From Laetiporus sulphureus 93-53 (lineage: Eukaryota > Basidiomycota > Agaricomycetes > Polyporales > Laetiporaceae): a DNA stretch of 64,000 bases. The position numbers and the translations under genes were made by a program. The DNA is taken from positions 451,863 to 515,862 of the forward strand of contig NW_024468520.1 in the NCBI RefSeq assembly GCF_001632365.1, given 5' to 3'. Below, piece after piece: positions 3 through 64,000 of this stretch (positions are counted from its first letter, which is position 1; the number at the start of each line of letters is the position of its first letter). A model generated the notes under the pieces. That model was not told the origin of the DNA. It saw only the letters and a program-made list of their open reading frames with translations, and ran no database searches.

Positions 3-1571
3 CTGGCAGCCATGGCTGGCGACACTCCATTGTACCATGAGGTGATGGCTGGGCCAGAACGTGAGCAATGGTGAGAAGCGATGCAGGAAGAGCTGGTGAA
101 GATAGAGGTGATGGGAACCTACGAGCTAGTTGAGAAGCCAGAGAATGCGCATGTCATCAGATCGGTATGGTCGCTCTGCAGGAAACGTGATGAGAACAAC
201 GAGATCATGAAGTACAAGGCATGCCTGTGCATGCAAGGGTTCTCGCAGATCCCGGGCATCGACTTCGACCAGACAGCGTCACTGACAGCAAGTCTTGCGT
301 CACTACAGCTTGCACTCACGCTCACCGCTGCCAACGACTGGGAGCTCCATCAAATCGACTTCAAAAATGCTTACCTGAATGGCGAGCTCGACGAGATGAT
401 TTACATGAAGCAGCCGTGAGGTTTCGAGGTTCCTGGATGCGAAAACTACATCTGGAAGCTGCTCAAGGCACTATACGGCCTCAAACAAGCTGATCGGCAA
501 TGGTACATCAAGCTCTGCGAGCTGTTTGCAGACCTGGGCCTACAGCGGAGCCAGCATGACTTTGGTGTGTTTTTCACCTTTGTCTCCAACATCATCGTCA
601 TCGTCGTTGTACATGTTGACAACTGCACGCTCGTCGCGGACACGAAGGTCACCATGACTGGCCTTAAGTGGGAGCTCGTCGCACGGTTCGAGATTGTCGA
701 CCTGGGTGAAGCACGCTGGCTACTAGGCTTTGAGATTCGCCACGACCGCGCTGCCCACACTATCTCGCTCTCACAAGCCATGTACATCGACACGATACTC
801 GATCACTTTGGCACGACTGATGCTTATGTACTCACAGTCCTGATGGACCCCCACATCAACCTCTTCGGTATCGAGCTCTCAGACGAAGATCGCGTGCACA
901 TGGCTCGCAAGCTGTATGCAAGGCTCATCGGGAGCCTTATGTACACCGCTATCAGCACACATCCTGACATCGCATTCGCCACTTCGACACTGGCGCACTT
1001 CATGGCTGACCCAGCGCCCACGCATTGGGATGCTGCAAAATGCATGCTGCGCTATCTTAAAGGCACACGCGACCTGGCCTTGATGTTCGGTGTGACAACT
1101 GATGGTCTTATAGGTTACACTGATGCCGACTGGGCCTCGCAAGCTCACCGTCACTCGATCTCGGTGTACAGCTTCCTCTACTCTGGGGGAGCTGTCAGCT
1201 GGTCTTCGCGCAAGCAGCCCCTTATTGTGCTATCTTCCATGGAGGCCGAATACATTGCCGCATCTGACGCATCGCGTGAGCTGTTGTGGCTATGTGCGCT
1301 TCTCGTGGAACTTACCTCGCCTCTGGCGGAACTGACACCGTTACATGCCGACAATCAGAGCGCAATCGCGATCACGCAGAGTGGACTCCTTCATGCGCGA
1401 ACGAAGCATATCAACATTCGCTACCATTTCATTCACGAGGTTATCAATATGGAATGCGCCATCATCTTGTATTGCCCGACCAACGACATGGTCGCTGACC
1501 TTCTTACCAAGGCGTTGACCCGCCAGAAGGTGGAGAAGTTCGCTGGAATGCTTGGACTTTGCCTGGCTTGA
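3..1571 (+). pseudogene. Ty1/copia pol fragment (RT-RNase H), decayed
   Basis: The frame reads the C-terminal part of a copia polyprotein. It starts just upstream of the reverse transcriptase (PEREQW..EAMQEEL) and passes through DFDQTAS, DFKNAYLNGELDE, LYGLKQADRQWY, DLGEARWLLG and the RNase H block (YTDADWA, SSMEAEYIA, HADNQSAI, MVADLLTKAL). Two in-frame TGA codons interrupt it, at 72-74 and 417-419; both fit CGA to TGA changes. The RT catalytic box, normally YVDD, reads HVDN near 613-624, so the second aspartate is lost and the enzyme should be dead even without the stops. The RNase H acidic residues remain. Gag, protease and integrase lie off the left edge. Directly after the stop come a purine tract (1571-1578) and an LTR start, so this is the 3' end of an element. 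Confidence 0.9.
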
Positions 1572-4325: not shown

Positions 4326-6455
4326 ATGGCCGCACTTGAAGAATCCGAACACTCCGTAGAAGGACACCTGAATCCCGAAGGACCCCGGGCATCCACTCCA
4401 TCATCCTTCAATAACACCAACATCCTCGCTCCCACTCCCCGATACTTCATGACACCAGCAATGCTGGAGGCGCTCCCCAGGAGAAGGGGACCTTCGGCAA
4501 GACTGGTAGAAGAATTCGCCACCCTATACCCTAACGAATCAAGAACAGGGAGGCGGTTCCATCAGTGGGAGTACGATATCCGAGCTCGAGACCATTCAGA
4601 AGAAGATCGACAAAGATATCGGACGCAACCAATAGACGTGGTGGCAAGACATGGAGGAGCGGCGAGGGGACAGGACTACGTCTGGTCAAGTCACGCTTCA
4701 GGAACTCCGCCAGGGTACGAGCGATACCGGCTCCCCGATAATAGACAAAGCTACTACCTGGCACGACCTGGCCTGCCCCCACCAACGGAAGAAACACCTG
4801 GGTTCTGGACTCAACCTGTCGATATGCGGCGTGCCTACCAACATCTCCAGGCGGACTACGACCGTCTACGCGGTAGACTCGACGCGGCCCTAAGAGAGAC
4901 AGCCGAAGCACGGGAAGGACGTCGGACGGCTGAAGCCACTCGCGACCGTCTCATGGCCGACATCAGTGAAAGGACCGCGGCGGGAATAGAGCGCGGCAAC
5001 CAGATCCATAAGCTAACGACGGAACTGGAAGCCTTCAAAAGGGCGCTCAAATCCAGCGAGGAAAGGGTTGCGGGTCTAGAAGGCATCAACAAGACCCAAG
5101 AAACCCGAATCCACCTCCTAGAAGCCATGACGCGTCCACCACCGCCTTCCCCCATTCGATCACCTAAGAAACCGGTCGATAAGGGCAAAAGGAGGCAGGA
5201 TCCTGGACAACAGGATATTCGGGATTGGGTAAAAGGAGTTGGCGGGCCCGCCGGCCCTAGTGGGCTCAAACCGGCACACCAGGCAAACCCTGAGCAGCCG
5301 CCCTCTAGGGTGCAGACGCCCCCAATGTCCCCGGCACACTTCTACAGGGGAGATGAAGATGACGAGTTGGCGGGAGCACATTATGCATTCCCACCCGAGC
5401 AACCGGTCCCACCACCAGATCGGGACCGTCGCTCTGCAGCCCCGCCACCAGCATCCTCGGACGAGGTACATAGAAAATCGTTCCGAGGGCCAAAGGTCAA
5501 TCTCCCGGAGCCATTCGATGGCACCAAGGCAAAGGCAAAGGCATGGCTTGTCGATGTAATGAACTACATCGTCATGAAACCCAGCGAGTTCGAAGACGAA
5601 CAAAGTAAAATTCGCTGGGCCATGTCTTACATCCGAGGACCACAGATCGACCACTGGAAGGCATCCCTTCTAGAAAGGATGATGGGAGGCCCACCGGTAT
5701 ACGTCACGCTCCAGGACTTCATCGCGGACTTCAAGAAAATGTACTACCCCGCGAATCCGGAGCTCGAAGGTCAACGGATGCTGCGCAACATGCAGCAAAG
5801 ATACAAGCCTTGGGAGGAATTTGAGGCCGAATGGGAACATTGGGTCAAGGTCTCGGGGTACAAGGATGAGCAGCTGCTGCTCCAATTACTAAGGACGGCC
5901 ATGAGAAAAGAACTCTGTGACAGAGTATGGTCGTCCGAAGGAATAAGCCGGGATGTCAATAGCTACAGCTTGTGGAAACAAGTTGCAGCCCGGTTAGACC
6001 TTCAACAGCAGCAGCAGTGGGCATCCACCTTTGAGGACCGAAAGGGCAAGGGGAAAGCCAAGGACTCCAAAACCCGACAAGTCCAGCAGGAGGAAGGTTC
6101 AACAACGGTAACGGCAAACGCGGTCAGGACAACGGGGAGGGCGCCCATCAGGAACGTCGATGAGGCAGGAAGGGCGGTGCCGCACAAGGAAACGGTAGGC
6201 GTCGAAAATGAACGCGACAAACACCGAAAGTGTGGTACCTGCGGAAAGGAAAGGTCGGAGAAAGGGTCGTGCACGGATATATGGCACACCCATTACTACG
6301 ACGGAAAGGGGCAGTGCTGGCGCAAAAAGGATGCCCAGCCTGCAGCTCGGGCCAGTACGGTAGAAGAAACCGAGGCCGTACGAGCATTCAAGGCGGCCAT
6401 TGCGGCCAACCCCGCTCTGCTCAACCAGGCGGGTTTTCAATTCGGCAAGGCTTAA
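4326..6455 (+). CDS. Gag of the gypsy chromovirus
   Basis: 709 aa starting at ATG 4326. A long charged coiled coil lies around residues 160-265 (heptads in LQADYDRLRGRL and KLTTELEAFKRALKS). It is followed by a proline-rich linker, then a retrotransposon-gag capsid core around residues 390-550 (LPEPFDGTKAKAKAWL, DFKKMYYP, RTAMRKELCDRVW). Near residue 640 is an unusual Cys/His cluster (CGTCGKERSEKGSC, then H, H and C) rather than a CCHC knuckle; it may still bind zinc or RNA. Gag forms the cytoplasmic particle. The last 226 nt overlap pol, with a GGGTTTT slip site 16 nt before the stop. Confidence 0.93.
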   Translation: MAALEESEHSVEGHLNPEGPRASTPSSFNNTNILAPTPRYFMTPAMLEALPRRRGPSARLVEEFATLYPNESRTGRRFHQWEYDIRARDHSEEDRQRYRTQPIDVVARHGGAARGQDYVWSSHASGTPPGYERYRLPDNRQSYYLARPGLPPPTEETPGFWTQPVDMRRAYQHLQADYDRLRGRLDAALRETAEAREGRRTAEATRDRLMADISERTAAGIERGNQIHKLTTELEAFKRALKSSEERVAGLEGINKTQETRIHLLEAMTRPPPPSPIRSPKKPVDKGKRRQDPGQQDIRDWVKGVGGPAGPSGLKPAHQANPEQPPSRVQTPPMSPAHFYRGDEDDELAGAHYAFPPEQPVPPPDRDRRSAAPPPASSDEVHRKSFRGPKVNLPEPFDGTKAKAKAWLVDVMNYIVMKPSEFEDEQSKIRWAMSYIRGPQIDHWKASLLERMMGGPPVYVTLQDFIADFKKMYYPANPELEGQRMLRNMQQRYKPWEEFEAEWEHWVKVSGYKDEQLLLQLLRTAMRKELCDRVWSSEGISRDVNSYSLWKQVAARLDLQQQQQWASTFEDRKGKGKAKDSKTRQVQQEEGSTTVTANAVRTTGRAPIRNVDEAGRAVPHKETVGVENERDKHRKCGTCGKERSEKGSCTDIWHTHYYDGKGQCWRKKDAQPAARASTVEETEAVRAFKAAIAANPALLNQAGFQFGKA
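6431..6437 (+). promoter_or_regulatory. -1 ribosomal frameshift heptamer (gag-pol)
   Basis: G GGT TTT in the gag phase fits the X XXY YYZ slip rule. After slippage the next codon is TCA at 6437 in the pol frame, which then stays open to 11554. The gag stop lies at 6453-6455. A stimulatory RNA structure should begin 5-9 nt downstream. Short complementary runs (GCAAG and CTTGC) lie in 6445-6475, but I did not fold them. Confidence 0.75.
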
Positions 6456-9400
6456 GTACGCAAGTCTTGCAGGACTCACGACTCGATCCGGACATTTCAG
6501 TTTCCCCGACCAGTAACATGCATTCCTCGGTGGTGGAGGCCCAAAAGCCTGAGAAGCGCCCTGGTTTACATGGGTCACCCCCGACCATTAACGGCCATTC
6601 CATGGTCACGGAGGTCGCGAGACCTGAGAAGGGCCATGGTTTAGACGGGTCACCAAAAGGTAGGTCCCCAGGGAGAGTCGAGCTGATGGTGGTGGAGGCA
6701 AAGCCTGAGAAGCGCCATCAAGCCGTACCTGAAAACACCCTGGAGGGATGTGGGCAGGAGGGTCTAAGCTCAGGAAAGGGAAAATTCAGTACCCCTGACG
6801 CAGACGACAGCACACCACCACACCCTAACGGATCTCAATTTTCAATTCTTTCATCTATCAACTGTACCACTAGCACTACGTCGGACAATATGGGTACAAG
6901 TAGTGGTGCCCACTCTAATGTAACAGTAGTAAGAGCGAAAACGGGGTCTCGGGATGACGGGACCTTAGCGGTGCCTGATCGAGCTCGGCCGGATCAAGAA
7001 GCATCGGTGCTTAATTCCGTGAATAGCTCAATTTCTAACATTTCTTCAGTTCAGGATAGTTTGCAAGTGGAAGCTTCAACATCGGCAAGGCGTACACCGA
7101 AGAAGAAGGCACAGAAAACCACTCTGCGTGTATTTTTAGACCACCCGCAAGCCATCGTGCCCACTCGACAAACAGAAGGCGCAGCAGGGTACGATCTGCA
7201 CTCAGCGGAGGAAGTGGTCATTCCCGGACGCTCCCGTCTCCTCGTAGATACCGGCCTGAAGTTGATGATACCCAGCGGATGCTACGGACGCATCGCTCCG
7301 CGCTCAGGCTTGGCTGTAAAACATGGAATAGATGTAGGAGCCGGAGTAATAGACTCTGACTATGTCGGTCGAGTCAAAATACTCCTAATCAATACCCTTG
7401 ATACCCCGTTCCAGATTGAGTATGGGGACCGAGTCGCCCAACTAATCCTGGAACGAAACGATACCCCGATTACCGAAGTCGTAACAGAAATAGCAGAAAC
7501 AGCAAGAGGGACTGCTGGATTCGGATCGACAGGTACTAAACTGCGAGGACAATTCAACGTCCGAGCAGTACGACGACATCGCCAAATCGACATACCCGTA
7601 ACAATAGAAGTTGGGGATAGGAATATACCCGCCAAAGCCCTTCTAGATTCAGGTTGCACCGGGTGCTGCATCGACGAACAATTCGTATCTAAGTTTCAGA
7701 TACCAAAGATACCGTTCGATCGACCACTCCGCGTGTTCAACGCAGATGGGACCCCCAACCGAGATGGCGATATGACGCACTATGTACTATTAGATATAGT
7801 TATCCAAGGCCATAGAGAGCGCCGATCGTTCAATGTGACTACCCTATCGGACCACGATATGTTCCTCGGGTTCGATTGGTTAGAGGATCACAACCCTGAC
7901 ATTGACTGGGCTAAACGCACGCTTCGCTTCACGCGTTGTAACTGCGGGGAGCTTAAGTTAGAAGACGGGGATAAGGTGCTGGCATTGGACAGCGACTACA
8001 TTCGGAAGCAGTTTTCCGAATACGAACATATACGAGCCACCAAGGCCACCGACCTAGCCATCGCTCAAGGCAAAAGTACTAAAGCCAAGAGTATGCAAGA
8101 GGTAGTTCCAGAAGAATACTGGGATTATAAGGAAGTCTTCGAGGAAGCTGAATTCGATCAGCTCCCTGAACGCAGAGTATGGGATCACGCTATAGAACTA
8201 ATAGACGGCGCGAAACCTTTCTGCGGAAAGGTGTATCCAATGAGCGTAAAAGAACAAGAAGCTCTGGATACATTCCTCGAAGAAAACCTTAAGACTGGTC
8301 GTATACGACAGTCCAAATCCCCCTGGGGCGCCCCCTTCTTCTTTGTCAAGAAAAAGGATGGCAAGTTAAGGCCGGTTCAGGACTATAGACGGCTCAATGA
8401 AGTCACAAAGAAAAATAAATACCCGCTCCCTCTAATCAATGACTTATTCGACCGGCTTAAGGGAGCCCGGTACTACTCTAAGCTCGATATCCGGTGGGGC
8501 TATAATAACATACGAATCAAGGAAGGAGATGAGGAAAAGGCCGCGTTCGTCACGAACCGAGGTCTATTCGAACCTCTAGTGATGTTCTTCGGACTCACTA
8601 ATTCACCATCAACGTTCCAAATGATGATGAATGACATCTTCCATGATCTAATCCTCACTGGAAAAGTTATGGTATACCTGGACGATATCCTAATATTCAC
8701 CAAGGACATGGAGGAACATCGTCAGGTTGTAAAACAAGTACTTAGAATACTCCGAGAACATAAGTTGACGTGCAAACCTGAAAAGTGCGAGTTTCATGTC
8801 GAAGAAACTGAGTACCTAGGTCACATCATTGGCCATGGGAAACTTCGCATGGATCCTGCAAAGGTTGCTGGCATTGCAGAATGGCCAGAACCCAGGTCCA
8901 AGAAGGACGTTCAGCAGTTCCTCGGATTCTGTAACTATTATAGACGTTTTGTGAAAGGCTTCGGCTCCTTGGCCAAGCCTCTTTCGGACCTTACGGGTAA
9001 CCGAGAATGGGAATGGACGGACACTGAACGAAGTGCCTTCCAAGGTCTCAAGGACCTCCTTACATCGGCCCCAATTGTACATATACCTACGGACGAGGAC
9101 CCGTTTATGGTAGAAGTAGATGCTTCGCAATTCGCCCTCGGGGCAGTTCTTATGCAGAAGCAAGATAATCTTTGGGTACCGGTATCGTATTACAGTAGGT
9201 CGTTCAAGGACGCCGAGAAGAACTATCAAGTGTACGATAGAGAACTTCTCGCTATTGTAGATTGTCTAGAGGAATGGCGACACTACTTAATACACGCAAA
9301 ACATACTGTACAGATCTTCACTGACCATCTTAATCTCACGTATTTTAGGAAACCCCAGAAAATCAACCCCCGTCAAGCACGGTGGATGTCCTTCCTCGCC

Positions 9401-11554
9401 GAATACGATTTCGAACTCCATCATATCCCAGGCAAGAAAAATAGTGCAGCAGACGCTCTTAGCAGACGTCCAGACTATGACGACGGTATGGATCACTTGG
9501 ATAATCAGGTCGTATTACCTGCCGAGTTGTTCCGAAGTACCAAAGTTATAGGGACAGACGCCATCCGCGACCTCTGCGCCATACATTCTTCCGAATATTT
9601 ATTATGGAAAACTTTGCCTCAAAAGGAGCTCGAGTCAGCCGAGGACGGCACACTCTGGAGGGGGGGTGAAATTCTCATAATTCCAAACAACCAAGAAATA
9701 ATCGGCAAAGTAATACAGTCCCACCACGATGCCGCGTTCATGGGACACCCAGGAATAGAAAGGACCATGGAATTAATCAAGCGATCGTACTGGTGGCCGG
9801 AGATGATCAAGGATGTTACGGCGTATGTGAAAGGTTGTGGGACCTGTCAGAAGGCCAAACCTAACCGCCAACATCGATCAGCACCATTAGAGCCAAACCC
9901 AGTTCCAGACCATAACTGGCAGTACATCTCCACGGACCTTATTGTAAAACTACCAACTGTAGACGGATACGACTCCATCCTTGTATTTGTAGATTTGAAG
10001 TCGAAAGACTTCATAGCCATACCCTGCACGGAGTCAATTAATTCGAAGGACTATGCGGACTTGTACATTAAACATGTAATGTCGGCACACGGACTAGCAG
10101 AAAGGATATGGTCCGACAGGGGACCACAGTTCGTATCCTCGTTCACCAAGGATGTATACCAACAGTTGGGCATCCAGGGGAATCCTTCTACTGCCTATCA
10201 CCCTCAGACGGATGGACAGACGGAACGGATGAACCAGGAAATAGAAACCTACCTGAGGATATATACTTCCTATAGACAGGACGACTGGCCTTCCAAAATA
10301 CCCCTCGCTATGTTCGCATACCGAAACCATAGACAAGCAAGCACCGGTTATACCCCATTCTACCTTACGCATGGATACCATCCCTATACGGGAGTCGAAA
10401 CCAGGAAAGAACCCCGCAACCAATCGGCCGAAGAATGGACGAAAGAGATGGAGGAACTTTCCAAGGACGCAACTAATCACCTTACCAAAGCGAAAGGTAT
10501 AATGAAGAAGTACCACGATGGCAAATACCCAGACCATGCGGCCTATACCAAGGGCGATCTGGTACTACTAGAAGGAACTAATATTACAACCACTCGACCG
10601 AGCAAGAAGCTGGACGATAAACGCTACGGACCATTTAGTATAGTAGAAAAGGTCGGGAAGTCGGCTTTCAGACTCAAGCTCCCACCCGCTTGGCGTCATA
10701 TACACCCCGTCTTCCACGAATCCCTATTAATACCCTATCACCCTGCACAATTTAGTGTACAAAAAGACGATACTACTATACCCGTTCCGGAGGGCGAACC
10801 CCCTACCATTAGCCAAATCCTCGACAGTAAAAAGTCCAAGACTGGACTATTATACCTGGTCAAATGGAAAGGGAAGGACGACACCGAGAACACCTGGATA
10901 CCCCGCTCTACAATAGCAAAGGACTATATTCTGTTACTTAATAACTTCCATAAGCTACATCCCAAGGCACCCAAACCGCCTAATCTCCTTACTATACCCG
11001 GTGGTCAAAGGATCCGCGCTCAAGAAGACGAAGAAAGCGACGATGAACCTGACAGTAAGGGAGAAAAGAGGACGGAAGAGGAAGAGGAAGAGTGGAAGGA
11101 AAAGATCTACTGGGATCATAAAATGATACGATGGTATAAACGCAAGTTCCAAGCCCATGTCGTACTTCACGTACCCCTCGATACCACGATCGGCCTAGAA
11201 ATAGGGCTGCCCGAGAAGTTCGACATCGTATGCATCTGGCTAGTGAACCCAGACCACTATATCCATACGGTCTTGTTCGTAGGAACCCCCAAGTCGCGTA
11301 ACCATCTATTTGTATACCCAGTCAACGCCCAGTGGGTCGTAGAAGAAGGAAAGATCCAGTGCCCGGAGCGCACTCACGGCTATTATTATCTCGACGATGC
11401 ACCAATACCCTGGCAACGTATGCGTTTCAAGGATACCCCGGTGAAGGAAGAGGACGTCTCCACTTATACCACATATGACCCGGAGCGTACTCGGACACCA
11501 ATACCCAAAACCAAATGGAACCTACAAGCCGTACACCCACGCATCTACGACTAG
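6437..11554 (+). CDS. pol: Pol: dUTPase-PR-RT-RH-IN-chromodomain
   Basis: The pol frame is open from 6230 and is entered by -1 frameshift near 6437. In order: a low-similarity linker; a trimeric-type dUTPase at about 7120-7540 with all five motifs (AAGYDLHS, PRSGLA, GVIDSDYVGRV, GDRVAQLIL, RGTAGFGSTG); an aspartic protease with LLDSG (about 7645); RT with YLDD at 8675-8686; RNase H (EVDAS, YDRELLAI, FTDH); integrase with HHCC zinc finger (HHDAAFMGHPG, CGTCQKAK) and a D,D-35-E core (STD, SDRGPQF, TERMNQ); GPF module (RYGPFSIVEKVG); chromodomain (YLVKWKG, NTWIP). About 190 residues with no recognised domain follow. Everything needed for reverse transcription and integration appears present. Confidence 0.96.
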   Translation, partial: SIRQGLSTQVLQDSRLDPDISVSPTSNMHSSVVEAQKPEKRPGLHGSPPTINGHSMVTEVARPEKGHGLDGSPKGRSPGRVELMVVEAKPEKRHQAVPENTLEGCGQEGLSSGKGKFSTPDADDSTPPHPNGSQFSILSSINCTTSTTSDNMGTSSGAHSNVTVVRAKTGSRDDGTLAVPDRARPDQEASVLNSVNSSISNISSVQDSLQVEASTSARRTPKKKAQKTTLRVFLDHPQAIVPTRQTEGAAGYDLHSAEEVVIPGRSRLLVDTGLKLMIPSGCYGRIAPRSGLAVKHGIDVGAGVIDSDYVGRVKILLINTLDTPFQIEYGDRVAQLILERNDTPITEVVTEIAETARGTAGFGSTGTKLRGQFNVRAVRRHRQIDIPVTIEVGDRNIPAKALLDSGCTGCCIDEQFVSKFQIPKIPFDRPLRVFNADGTPNRDGDMTHYVLLDIVIQGHRERRSFNVTTLSDHDMFLGFDWLEDHNPDIDWAKRTLRFTRCNCGELKLEDGDKVLALDSDYIRKQFSEYEHIRATKATDLAIAQGKSTKAKSMQEVVPEEYWDYKEVFEEAEFDQLPERRVWDHAIELIDGAKPFCGKVYPMSVKEQEALDTFLEENLKTGRIRQSKSPWGAPFFFVKKKDGKLRPVQDYRRLNEVTKKNKYPLPLINDLFDRLKGARYYSKLDIRWGYNNIRIKEGDEEKAAFVTNRGLFEPLVMFFGLTNSPSTFQMMMNDIFHDLILTGKVMVYLDDILIFTKDMEEHRQVVKQVLRILREHKLTCKPEKCEFHVEETEYLGHIIGHGKLRMDPAKVAGIAEWPEPRSKKDVQQFLGFCNYYRRFVKGFGSLAKPLSDLTGNREWEWTDTERSAFQGLKDLLTSAPIVHIPTDEDPFMVEVDASQFALGAVLMQKQDNLWVPVSYYSRSFKDAEKNYQVYDRELLAIVDCLEEWRHYLIHAKHTVQIFTDHLNLTYFRKPQKINPRQARWMSFLAEYDFELHHIPGKKNSAADALSRRPDYDDGMDHLDNQVVLPAELFRSTKVIGTDAIRDLCAIHSSEYLLWKTLPQKELESAEDGTLWRGGEILIIPNNQEIIGKVIQSHHDAAFMGHPGIERTMELIKRSYWWPEMIKDVTAYVKGCGTCQKAKPNRQHRSAPLEPNPVPDHNWQYISTDLIVKLPTVDGYDSILVFVDLKSKDFIAIPCTESINSKDYADLYIKHVMSAHGLAERIWSDRGPQFVSSFTKDVYQQLGIQGNPSTAYHPQTDGQTERMNQEIETYLRIYTSYRQDDWPSKIPLAMFAYRNHRQASTGYTPFYLTHGYHPYTGVETRKEPRNQSAEEWTKEMEELSKDATNHLTKAKGIMKKYHDGKYPDHAAYTKGDLVLLEGTNITTTRPSKKLDDKRYGPFSIVEKVGKSAFRLKLPPAWRHIHPVFHESLLIPYHPAQFSVQKDDTTIPVPEGEPPTISQILDSKKSKTGLLYLVKWKGKDDTENTWIPRSTIAKDYILLLNNFHKLHPKAPKPPNLLTIPGGQRIRAQEDEESDDEPDSKGEKRTEEEEEEWKEKIYWDHKMIRWYKRKFQAHVVLHVPLDTTIGLEIGLPEKFDIVCIWLVNPDHYIHTVLFVGTPKSRNHLFVYPVNAQWVVEEGKIQCPERTHGYYYLDDAPIPWQRMRFKDTPVKEEDVSTYTTYDPERTRTPIPKTKWNLQAVHPRIYD

Positions 11555-63007: not shown

Positions 63008-64000
63008 TCAGTCCAGCTCATCGAGCTCGCCACGCCTGAGGAACTTGAGCACGGAGCCGACGTCAGATGCGACCTCACCGGCGACGTGACCGACCTTCTT
63101 CCAGTTGATCGCCTCGCTGTCCTCAGGGACCTCGCGCGCAACCGCGAAACGTCCATTCGGGACGACGACCCCAATTCTGGGGCGCCATGCAAGCGCCTCG
63201 CTGTCCGAGCGAGCGAGCAGCTCCTCGTTGAGGTCGCGCTTGAGGAAGCTGAGTACAGTCTTTGCGACACTGCCCCAGTTGATCGCCTCGCTGTCCTCAG
63301 GTGTGGCACGAGCCATGAGCTCGTCCTCGAAAGCACGCGCGAGCATCGGGTCCTCACGCTTGAGGAACTTTAGGACGGAGCCGACATCAGAGGCAACCTC
63401 GCCCGCAACGTGGCCGACCTTCTTCCAGTTAACTGCCTCGCTCTCCTCGGGAACCTCTCGGGCAAATTTGAACCGGTACGGAAAGTTGTCAGGGATCTTC
63501 GAGATGGGCCGGAAGTTGATAGCCTCGCTCTCTCCGCGCGCCATGAGCTCGTCCTCGAAGGAGCGTGCGAGTAAGGGATCCTCACGCTTGAGGAAGCTGA
63601 GTACGGTCTTCGCGACACTGCCCCAGTTGATCGCCTCGCTGTCCTCAGGGGTGGCACGAGCCATGAGCTCGTCCTCGAAGGCGCGCGCAAGCATCGGGTC
63701 CTCGCGCTTGAGGAACTTGAGCACGGAGCCGACATCAGAGGCGACCTCGCCCGCAACGTGACCGACCTTTTTCCAGTTGATCGCCTCGCTGGCCTCCGGG
63801 ACATCACGCGCAACCGGCCAGCGCCCGTTGGGAAGGACGACACCGATCCTGGGGTGCCACGCAATCGCCTCGCTATCGTCACGAGCGAGCAGCTCGCCGT
63901 CGAGATCGCGCTTGAGGAAGCCCAGCACGGTGCTGGCAACTTTGCCCCAGTTGATAGCCTCGCTGTTGGCAGGTACATCCCGCGCCATGAGCTCATCCTC
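63008..64000 (-). CDS. Kex2-type multi-peptide precursor, 5' part outside window
   Basis: The frame runs to the window edge. The last codons read EDELMAR, which is itself a repeat unit, so ATG 63988 is internal and the true start and any signal peptide lie beyond 64000. The visible 331 codons hold nine modules. Each begins with an acidic pro-segment ending (D/E/A/N)SEA or GESEA, followed by a core opening with aliphatic-N/A-W/F and closing with KR, RR or AR. From ATG 63988 as residue 1, class a (INWGSVAKTVLSFLKR type) is at 12-27, 120-135 and 236-251; class b (NWKKVGHVAGEVASDVGS.. to FLKR) at 70-95, 186-211 and 294-319; class c (AWRPRIGVVVPNGRF..AR) at 42-61 and 266-285; class d (INFRPISKIPDNFPYRF..AR) at 157-177. 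The order is a-c-b, a-d-b, a-c-b. Kexin would cut after KR/RR, and a dipeptidyl peptidase could trim EA. The function is unknown: surface peptides like Ustilago Rep1, antimicrobial peptides or RiPP-type signals are the options. Confidence 0.85.
   Translation of the reverse strand, partial: EDELMARDVPANSEAINWGKVASTVLGFLKRDLDGELLARDDSEAIAWHPRIGVVLPNGRWPVARDVPEASEAINWKKVGHVAGEVASDVGSVLKFLKREDPMLARAFEDELMARATPEDSEAINWGSVAKTVLSFLKREDPLLARSFEDELMARGESEAINFRPISKIPDNFPYRFKFAREVPEESEAVNWKKVGHVAGEVASDVGSVLKFLKREDPMLARAFEDELMARATPEDSEAINWGSVAKTVLSFLKRDLNEELLARSDSEALAWRPRIGVVVPNGRFAVAREVPEDSEAINWKKVGHVAGEVASDVGSVLKFLRRGELDELD

What the first reader, a model, noticed from the sequence alone, without database searches (positions are those of the whole stretch)
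63008..64000. Repeat precursor encoding at least four classes of Kex2-type peptides
Nine modules are visible, each with acidic pro-segment + SEA + core + basic cleavage site (six KR/RR, the rest AR). The layout parallels yeast alpha-factor (KR plus EA dipeptides) and kexin-processed fungal repeat proteins such as Rep1. Most such precursors repeat one peptide; this one multiplexes four unlike cores. I recognise none of them. The precursor layout is seen directly; processing and secretion are inferred.
Basis: partly seen in the sequence, partly recalled or inferred. Interest (0 to 1): 0.92.

Follow-up and report, generated by a model that had tools for sequence, protein, structure and literature searches.

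The report
Mushroom gene encoding a peptide cocktail
A wood-decay mushroom gene appears to encode one long precursor that is cut into several different small secreted peptides, most of them shaped like membrane-active helices; what they do has not been tested.

Summary
The minus-strand frame 63008-64000 carries nine modules: SEA-ended pro-segment, core, basic site (six KR/RR, three AR). It is a real gene: repeated cores differ at silent sites but hardly in protein, and 76 related proteins were found, the named ones from Agaricomycetes. The genome is, by inference, Laetiporus sulphureus 93-53. [quoted passage not shown]

(2) The alpha-factor (STE13) parallel fails: 0 of 367 pro-segments are XA/XP ladders. 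(3) Most AR sites fit an extended kexin motif, LxxR. (4) Multiplexing has precedents (Ece1; KEP 497993).

Apparently new: family-wide helical periodicity in the cores, an RIG[TV]V-type peptide co-encoded in distant members, and a C-terminal -LD in 62 of 77 sequences.

Best guess on function: membrane-active peptides used against competitors or grazers. Processing is inferred and activity untested. This gene's own 5' end, and so its signal peptide, lies in withheld sequence. Supplementary tables of the KEP surveys could not be opened, so the family may already be listed there.

The parts
63008..64000 (-). 3' part of the KEP-type precursor frame, 330 codons plus stop (63008-63010), open at the window edge
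   Evidence: relatives
63980..64000 (-). acidic spacer ending in LMAR (EDELMAR), cut by the window edge
63908..63955 (-). core B1 (INWGKVASTVLGFL) plus KR; SEA at 63956-63964
   Evidence: helix 18-33 in model
63881..63907 (-). acidic spacer DLDGELLAR (LxxR site)
63806..63865 (-). core C1 (IAWHPRIGVVLPNGRWPVAR, with AR site); SEA at 63866-63874; holds the RIGVV motif
63704..63781 (-). core A1 (INWKKVGHVAGEVASDVGSVLKFL) plus KR; SEA at 63782-63790
   Evidence: helix 76-100
63656..63703 (-). double acidic spacer EDPMLAR-AFEDELMAR
63584..63631 (-). core B2 (INWGSVAKTVLSFL) plus KR; SEA at 63632-63640
   Evidence: helix 126-140
63536..63583 (-). double acidic spacer EDPLLAR-SFEDELMAR
63458..63520 (-). 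core D (INFRPISKIPDNFPYRFKFAR, with AR site); SEA at 63521-63529
   Evidence: no structure predicted
63356..63433 (-). core A2 (VNWKKVGHVAGEVASDVGSVLKFL) plus KR; SEA at 63434-63442
   Evidence: helix 192-216
63308..63355 (-). double acidic spacer EDPMLAR-AFEDELMAR
63236..63283 (-). core B3 (INWGSVAKTVLSFL) plus KR; SEA at 63284-63292
   Evidence: helix 242-269, which runs on through the next spacer
63209..63235 (-). acidic spacer DLNEELLAR (LxxR site)
63134..63193 (-). core C2 (LAWRPRIGVVVPNGRFAVAR, with AR site); SEA at 63194-63202; holds the RIGVV motif
63032..63109 (-). core A3 (INWKKVGHVAGEVASDVGSVLKFL) plus RR; SEA at 63110-63118
   Evidence: helix 300-322
63011..63031 (-). C-terminal GELDELD; -LD end shared by 62 of 77 family sequences

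Best explanation
The frame is the 3' part of a Kex2-processed repeat protein (KEP) gene of a brown-rot polypore. The precursor enters the secretory pathway. Kexin cuts after KR/RR and after LxAR-type monobasic sites, and Kex1-type trimming removes the basic ends. This frees a mixture of a 24-residue and a 14-residue amphipathic helix (A, B) and Pro/Arg-rich extended peptides of about 19 to 20 residues (C, D). The acidic spacers and SEA pro-segments keep the precursor net negative until cutting. The released peptides most likely act outside the hypha on foreign membranes and cells (competitors, grazers) rather than as mating signals. Shown: gene, modules, purifying selection, family, helical periodicity. 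Inferred: secretion of this copy, each cleavage, the exact ends. Guessed: the target.
For: Modules and sites. Purifying selection between repeats. 76 relatives; 43 of 77 sequences pass a crude signal-peptide test. LxxR sites (P2 not K/R) number 605 against a shuffle mean of 158. LxxR is described as an expanded kexin motif (PMC8528282, passages), and single-Arg cuts were suggested for KEP peptides made in Pichia (PMC9769878). Core boundary: in 21 modules of 8 relatives (found by pattern) an xxAR site stands 0-2 residues before the core with no SEA segment. Helix: 259 distinct cores from 70 of 77 proteins peak at 100-105 degrees (mean z 1.92-1.95). 87 representatives under 50% identity still peak there (1.62 at 100, 1.73 at 105, SE 0.12). 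1104 16-mers and 766 22-mers from outside the cores give 0.15-0.21 at 100 and 0.05-0.07 at 105 degrees. Model: helices at all six A/B cores, none at the three C/D cores. One P_proprotein (kexin-type) match and one DPPIV_N locus in the genome. None of 22 UstYa matches is on this contig's held part.
Against: No transcript, peptide or activity data. This gene's N-terminus is not visible. Core A has a significant helical moment on its own (P 0.02) but core B does not (P 0.15). Cores are only weakly cationic (family mean +0.4). If the pro-segment stays on, the window's products carry -1 to +2, basic end included. Sequence outside the cores has a mild periodicity of its own, peaking at 85 degrees (z about 0.55). 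Six Coprinopsis kep knockouts had no phenotype and the synthetic KEP peptides tested were not antibacterial (PMC9769878), though those are other KEPs. Model confidence is low (pLDDT 64.8, pTM 0.32) and spacers are also drawn as helices. Three of 12 AR sites (MLAR twice, KFAR) do not fit the extended motif.
Confidence: 0.55

Rival explanations
1. The peptides are surface-active coat peptides, like those of Rep1 of Ustilago: they assemble on the hyphal wall or at air-water interfaces and help aerial growth or attachment.
For: Same precursor layout, amphipathic products, many copies. Rep1 peptides form amyloid-like fibrils on hyphae (PMC8528282 passage).
Against: The periodicity is helical (peak 100-105 degrees) with no excess at 160-180 degrees, whereas amyloid coats are strand-rich (recalled). 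Rep1's own sequence was not compared here. Cores diverge widely (87 groups under 50% identity among 259), which a common coat would not need.
Confidence: 0.25
2. The peptides are signals (alpha-factor-like or hormone-like) read by a receptor of the same or another species.
For: KEPs with STE13 ladders exist in Basidiomycota (PMC6339444 passages). The RIG[TV]V-type core recurs across distant members, as a receptor ligand might.
Against: 0 of 367 pro-segments is an XA/XP ladder. The helix cores are poorly conserved between family members.
Confidence: 0.1
3. The precursor is not cut. It is a repeat-rich wall or extracellular protein, and the basic sites are incidental.
For: Nothing here shows cleavage directly.
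Against: Six of six helix cores end at KR/RR. Family-wide LxxR excess. An xxAR site stands in place of the SEA segment in 21 modules of 8 relatives.
Confidence: 0.06
4. A dikaritin-type RiPP: cores cyclised by UstYa enzymes after kexin cutting.
For: Same precursor class; the genome has 22 UstYa (DUF3328) matches, counted exon by exon.
Against: None of the 22 lies on this contig's held part. The 330 residues hold one Tyr and no Cys. The side beyond 64000 is withheld, so a neighbour there cannot be excluded.
Confidence: 0.03

Closest known systems
Agaricomycete KEPs (e.g. Coprinopsis cinerea KEP 497993, Pleurotus KEP 1091723; PMC9769878)
   Same: Signal peptide (relatives), repeated cores, dibasic sites; unlike peptides can come from one precursor; monobasic Arg cuts suggested.
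   Different: No shared core sequence seen in the parts read. The peptides named there are short (about 6 to 20 residues), many with N-terminal pyroglutamate or a C-terminal W, some with STE13 ladders. Here there are helix-type cores with SxA pro-segments and LxAR spacers.
Umemura's KEP type #7 (G-1/P-2, PMC7329392 Table 2)
   Same: Spread over 49 genera including Laetiporus, Postia, Antrodiella and Phlebiopsis; it could be this family.
   Different: Cannot tell: its sequence was not seen. Wolfiporia, Sparassis, Fomitopsis, Daedalea and Steccherinum, where this family occurs, are not in its genus list.
Ece1 / candidalysin precursor of Candida albicans (PMC5784256 passages; eight peptides from a listing)
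   Same: One precursor, several unlike peptides, KR sites, an amphipathic helical product.
   Different: No sequence test was made. Ece1 is known for one lytic peptide; here helix cores are repeated and C/D-type peptides alternate with them.
Rep1 repellents of Ustilago maydis (PMC8528282 passage)
   Same: Repeats of peptides cut by Kex2; amphipathic by the title of a reference seen.
   Different: Rep1 peptides form amyloid-like fibrils; the periodicity here is helical. Sequence not compared.
Mastoparan (Pfam PF08249)
   Same: The first five residues of core A match positions 1-5 of the profile.
   Different: 9.5 bits against a cut-off of 21 for the window; also below cut-off in 3 of the 9 relatives scanned. 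A resemblance only, not membership.

Membership tests
KEX2-processed repeat protein (KEP) | repeated peptide cores | tested here: met
   nine modules, three triplets
KEX2-processed repeat protein (KEP) | dibasic kexin sites between repeats | tested here: met
   six KR/RR, all at the ends of A and B cores
KEX2-processed repeat protein (KEP) | N-terminal signal peptide | tested here: inconclusive
   5' end withheld; 43 of 77 family sequences pass a crude test; the genome's second copy has one on what looks like its own first exon
KEX2-processed repeat protein (KEP) | released peptides detected | not testable with these tools
   needs mass spectrometry
alpha-factor-type precursor | XA/XP dipeptide ladder after the kexin site (STE13) | tested here: not met
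   0 of 9 in the window, 0 of 367 in the family
dikaritin | UstYa (DUF3328) gene nearby | tested here: inconclusive
   0 of 22 genome matches on C11, but one flank is withheld
Mastoparan PF08249 | profile score over the curated cut-off | tested here: not met
   9.5 bits against 21
Rep1 repellent | fibril-forming, strand-rich peptides on hyphae | not tested
   only periodicity examined; helical peak, no strand peak
candidalysin/Ece1 | sequence homology to Ece1 | not tested
   no sequence comparison made; layout compared from passages

The most novel reading that the evidence does not exclude
A family of precursors found in Polyporales and at least part of Agaricales makes two-component cocktails. 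A fast-diverging amphipathic helix is co-released with a conserved Pro/Arg peptide (RIG[TV]V type). Both are freed by kexin at KR/RR plus a dedicated acidic-LxAR spacer, from a precursor that ends in a conserved -LD tag of unknown use. The helices would be the mushrooms' counterpart of venom-like membrane peptides, with only processing signals and helical pattern kept under selection.
Probability: 0.3. Interest if true: 0.68.

Novelty: new variant of a known kind. Interest (0 to 1): 0.5.

Why it matters
The functions of most KEP peptides are unknown (PMC9769878). This family gives them a definable physical property (a helix kept by pattern more than by sequence), testable peptide ends, and a second co-encoded peptide class. 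It suggests where to look for peptide weapons or surfactants in wood-decay mushrooms. It also suggests that surveys that look for KR/RR alone would miss sites: in this window 12 of the 18 predicted sites are AR, not dibasic.

Tried and rejected
Alpha-factor (STE13) processing: rejected by pro-segment composition; 3 of the 9 window segments also have odd length. Dikaritin: no UstYa on the contig's held part. Pfam: the window has no hit over a cut-off. Among the 9 relatives scanned with it, three have one (P0005 Gemini_mov 25.7 bits against 25, P0017 Rrp40_N 33.8 against 26.9, P0023 flgE_D3 33.6 against 27); I take these and the sub-threshold hits as repeat-inflated chance, which I did not test. 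A MACPF-KEP fusion in Postia placenta (P0027, P0028): a second Met plus signal peptide inside the model suggests two neighbouring genes joined by annotation (read by eye). No MACPF match was found in this genome, so it was not used as evidence.

A printed account: none of six strings from the window and relatives occurs in the held paper library. No title or abstract start listed or 74 describes this family; these were listings only, often partial (15 of 35, 20 of 346, 12 of 83 and 12 of 119 papers).

Weak points of the sets used: P0023 and P0024 entered alignment A1 on E 0.067 and 0.3, so their later E-values are by construction, and hits near them lean on that choice. E-values of repeat proteins are inflated, and some distant members could share layout rather than descent. 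The core set was made by pattern; a few of the 87 representatives are clearly not cores (a His/Gly-rich stretch, a signal-peptide stretch) and were left in. The first control for periodicity took only the first 400 of 1104 16-mers in alphabetical order; it was redone on all 1104 and on 766 22-mers with the same outcome. RIG count: 17 of 77 includes one chance-like match (P0006), two annotations of one gene (P0027, P0028) and near-duplicates (P0004/P0025, P0016/P0018). The own-genome search with a distant member (P0029) found nothing.

Full report
What is there. The minus-strand frame at 63008-64000 is open for 330 codons, stops at 63008-63010 and continues past the window edge. The window is G000:C11:451863-515862 of a 38.6 Mb genome; bases beyond 64000 are withheld. 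Contig C40 of this genome is 364,085 bases long, which is also the longest contig given for P0006, LAESUDRAFT_761950 of Laetiporus sulphureus 93-53. P0006 aligns to C40 at 99-100% in two blocks, residues 1-28 and 25-315. The genome is therefore, by inference, that of L. sulphureus 93-53, order Polyporales.

Anatomy. The nine modules run B-C-A, B-D-A, B-C-A. B is INWGSVAKTVLSFL or a variant, A is INWKKVGHVAGEVASDVGSVLKFL (V for I at its first residue in one copy), C is (I/L)AW(H/R)PRIGVV(L/V)PNGR(W/F)(P/A)VAR, and D is INFRPISKIPDNFPYRFKFAR. D sits where C sits in the other triplets and resembles it at the start (SEA, then a residue pattern ending in R/H-P) and the end, so I read it as a diverged C. 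A and B end at KR or RR (six of six); C and D end at AR. Each core is preceded by a 5- or 8-residue segment ending in SEA. Spacers are acidic and end in AR. In the 330 residues K+R is 45 and D+E is 61, so the chain is net negative, while every core by itself is positive (+1 to +3). With the pro-segment left on, and the basic end included, the products run from -1 to +2.

Not chance, and translated. SEA[ILV][NA][WF] occurs nine times; the most in 20,000 residue shuffles was one. Among the three A modules pS is 0.34-0.53 and pN 0.015-0.03. B2 and B3 are identical in protein with three silent changes. C1-C2 pS is 0.56 and pN 0.12. Whole triplets give dN/dS 0.16, 0.20 and 0.26. Other frames on both strands are also open here, but codon-position G+C (0.68, 0.42, 0.77) and the protein relatives belong to this frame.

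Relatives. Three protein searches gave 76 proteins, each search scoring only about 8,000 candidates. The first search linked the window to its distant SGA-type members by a single sequence (P0016-P0018, E 9e-11 to 7e-10); two others, P0023 and P0024, were taken into the profile on weak E-values (0.067, 0.3). Named relatives come from Rhodonia/Postia placenta, Laetiporus, Wolfiporia, Sparassis, Daedalea, Fomitopsis, Antrodiella, Phlebiopsis, Cerrena, Irpex, Steccherinum, Phanerochaete, Cristinia and Blastosporella. Four lineages were looked up: Laetiporus and Steccherinum are Polyporales, Cristinia and Blastosporella are Agaricales; the rest are Polyporales by recall. Blastosporella's match is weak (E 5e-6). 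Many others come from sources without a name. Of 77 sequences (76 relatives and the window piece), 43 passed a crude signal-peptide test, one of them doubtful. Of the 77, 62 end in -LD (60 by a stricter pattern). The 15 others include one with an in-frame stop (P0006) and two that end one residue off (P0019, P0074); whether the rest are cut short was not checked.

Processing. Sites of the form LxxR with no K/R at P2 number 605 in the 77 sequences, against a shuffle mean of 158 and maximum of 187 (300 shuffles). In the window, 7 of 12 AR sites have Leu at P4 and 2 more have Ala or Pro; MLAR (twice) and KFAR do not fit. LxxR, with Leu or another aliphatic residue at P4, is described as the expanded kexin motif (PMC8528282, passages). 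Cuts after single Arg were suggested for Coprinopsis KEPs made in Pichia (PMC9769878). The core start is supported by relatives: in 21 modules of 8 proteins, a listing made by pattern, an xxAR site lies 0-2 residues before INWKK, VNWKK or another helix-like core, with no SxA segment. Four of the 8 are from Daedalea or Fomitopsis; the others are unnamed. The STE13 parallel fails: 0 of 367 pro-segments (291 distinct) is an XA/XP ladder.

Shape. The hydrophobic moment of 259 distinct cores from 70 of 77 proteins, each against 200 shuffles of itself, peaks at 100-105 degrees with mean z 1.92-1.95; 152 of 259 have P below 0.05 at 100 degrees. With 87 representatives below 50% identity the peak is z 1.73 at 105 degrees (SE 0.12), and 42 of 87 have P below 0.05 at 100 degrees. 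As control, 1104 16-mers and 766 22-mers from outside the cores of the same proteins give 0.15 and 0.21 at 100 degrees and 0.05 and 0.07 at 105; 93 of 1104 and 86 of 766 have P below 0.05. These controls have a mild peak of their own at 85 degrees, z about 0.55. No excess is seen at strand angles. In the window itself core A is significant (P 0.02), the B cores are not (P 0.15), and C and D are not (P 0.15-0.95). An AlphaFold2 model of low confidence (pLDDT 64.8, pTM 0.32) puts helices on all six A/B cores and none on the three C/D cores; it also draws helices in spacers. The second residue of the cores is N, D, S or T in 58% against 26% overall (250 cores), as for a helix cap (recalled rule).

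A second, shared peptide. The RIG..V motif of core C is found in 17 of 77 sequences; 500 rounds of shuffles gave a mean of 0.94 and a maximum of 6, and the reversed sequences gave none. One match looks like chance and several are near-duplicates, but Laetiporus, Rhodonia/Postia, Antrodiella, Steccherinum and, less closely, Phlebiopsis have it. In 16 of the 17 it shares the precursor with at least one SxA module. A precursor that carries both kinds is thus not a quirk of this gene, though 60 of 77 sequences lack this motif.

Known context. KEPs are an established class. I saw the outlines and abstracts of PMC6339444, PMC7329392 and PMC9769878, passages of the first two, section 6 part 1 of the second, and of the third the introduction, results parts 1 and 2 of 3, and the discussion. 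Functions of most KEPs are unknown. Six Coprinopsis kep knockouts had no phenotype and the synthetic peptides tested were not antibacterial. Unlike peptides from one precursor are known (for KEP 497993, listing only, for Ece1). I found no paper on the present family in the listings, several of them partial. Supplementary tables were out of reach, and Umemura's type #7, found in Laetiporus, Postia and 47 other genera, may be this family.

How it most likely works. Shown: the gene, its modules, selection on the peptide sequence, the family, the helical pattern. Inferred: entry to the secretory pathway, kexin and Kex1 cutting, release of A, B, C and D. Best guess: A and B insert in or disturb foreign membranes, and C/D act beside them. 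Fast change of cores under fixed processing signals fits biotic conflict better than a fixed structural role: mean pairwise identity is 0.17 for the first 8 core residues, 0.12 for the last 8, and 0.36 for site octamers, the last raised because sites were chosen by motif. The modest core charge and the lack of any assay keep this open, with Rep1-like surface coating the main rival.

Noticed in passing
L015:3845-4842 (-), contig C40 of the same genome: A second family gene (P0006, LAESUDRAFT_761950) with the signal peptide on what looks like a short first exon and an in-frame TAG before the usual C-terminal motif; the frame stays open beyond the stop.
   Followed up: partly
P0027 and P0028 (Postia placenta): Gene models that run from a MACPF (perforin-like) protein into a family precursor with its own Met and signal peptide, probably two neighbouring genes joined by annotation.
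   Followed up: partly
62 of 77 family sequences; window 63011-63031: C-terminal -LD (mostly NELD, DELD or NDLD) after the last cutting site; no explanation.
   Followed up: partly
window 6212-11554 (+): Ty3/gypsy-type element frame of 1780 codons (RVT_1, RNase H, integrase zinc-binding, chromodomain) that also carries a dUTPase domain.
   Followed up: no
window 420-1571 (+): Frame with an RVT_2 reverse transcriptase match, the type of copia elements (recalled).
   Followed up: no
P0023 (unnamed source): Family member with extra two-cysteine stretches between the helix-type modules, possibly a third kind of peptide in this layout.
   Followed up: no
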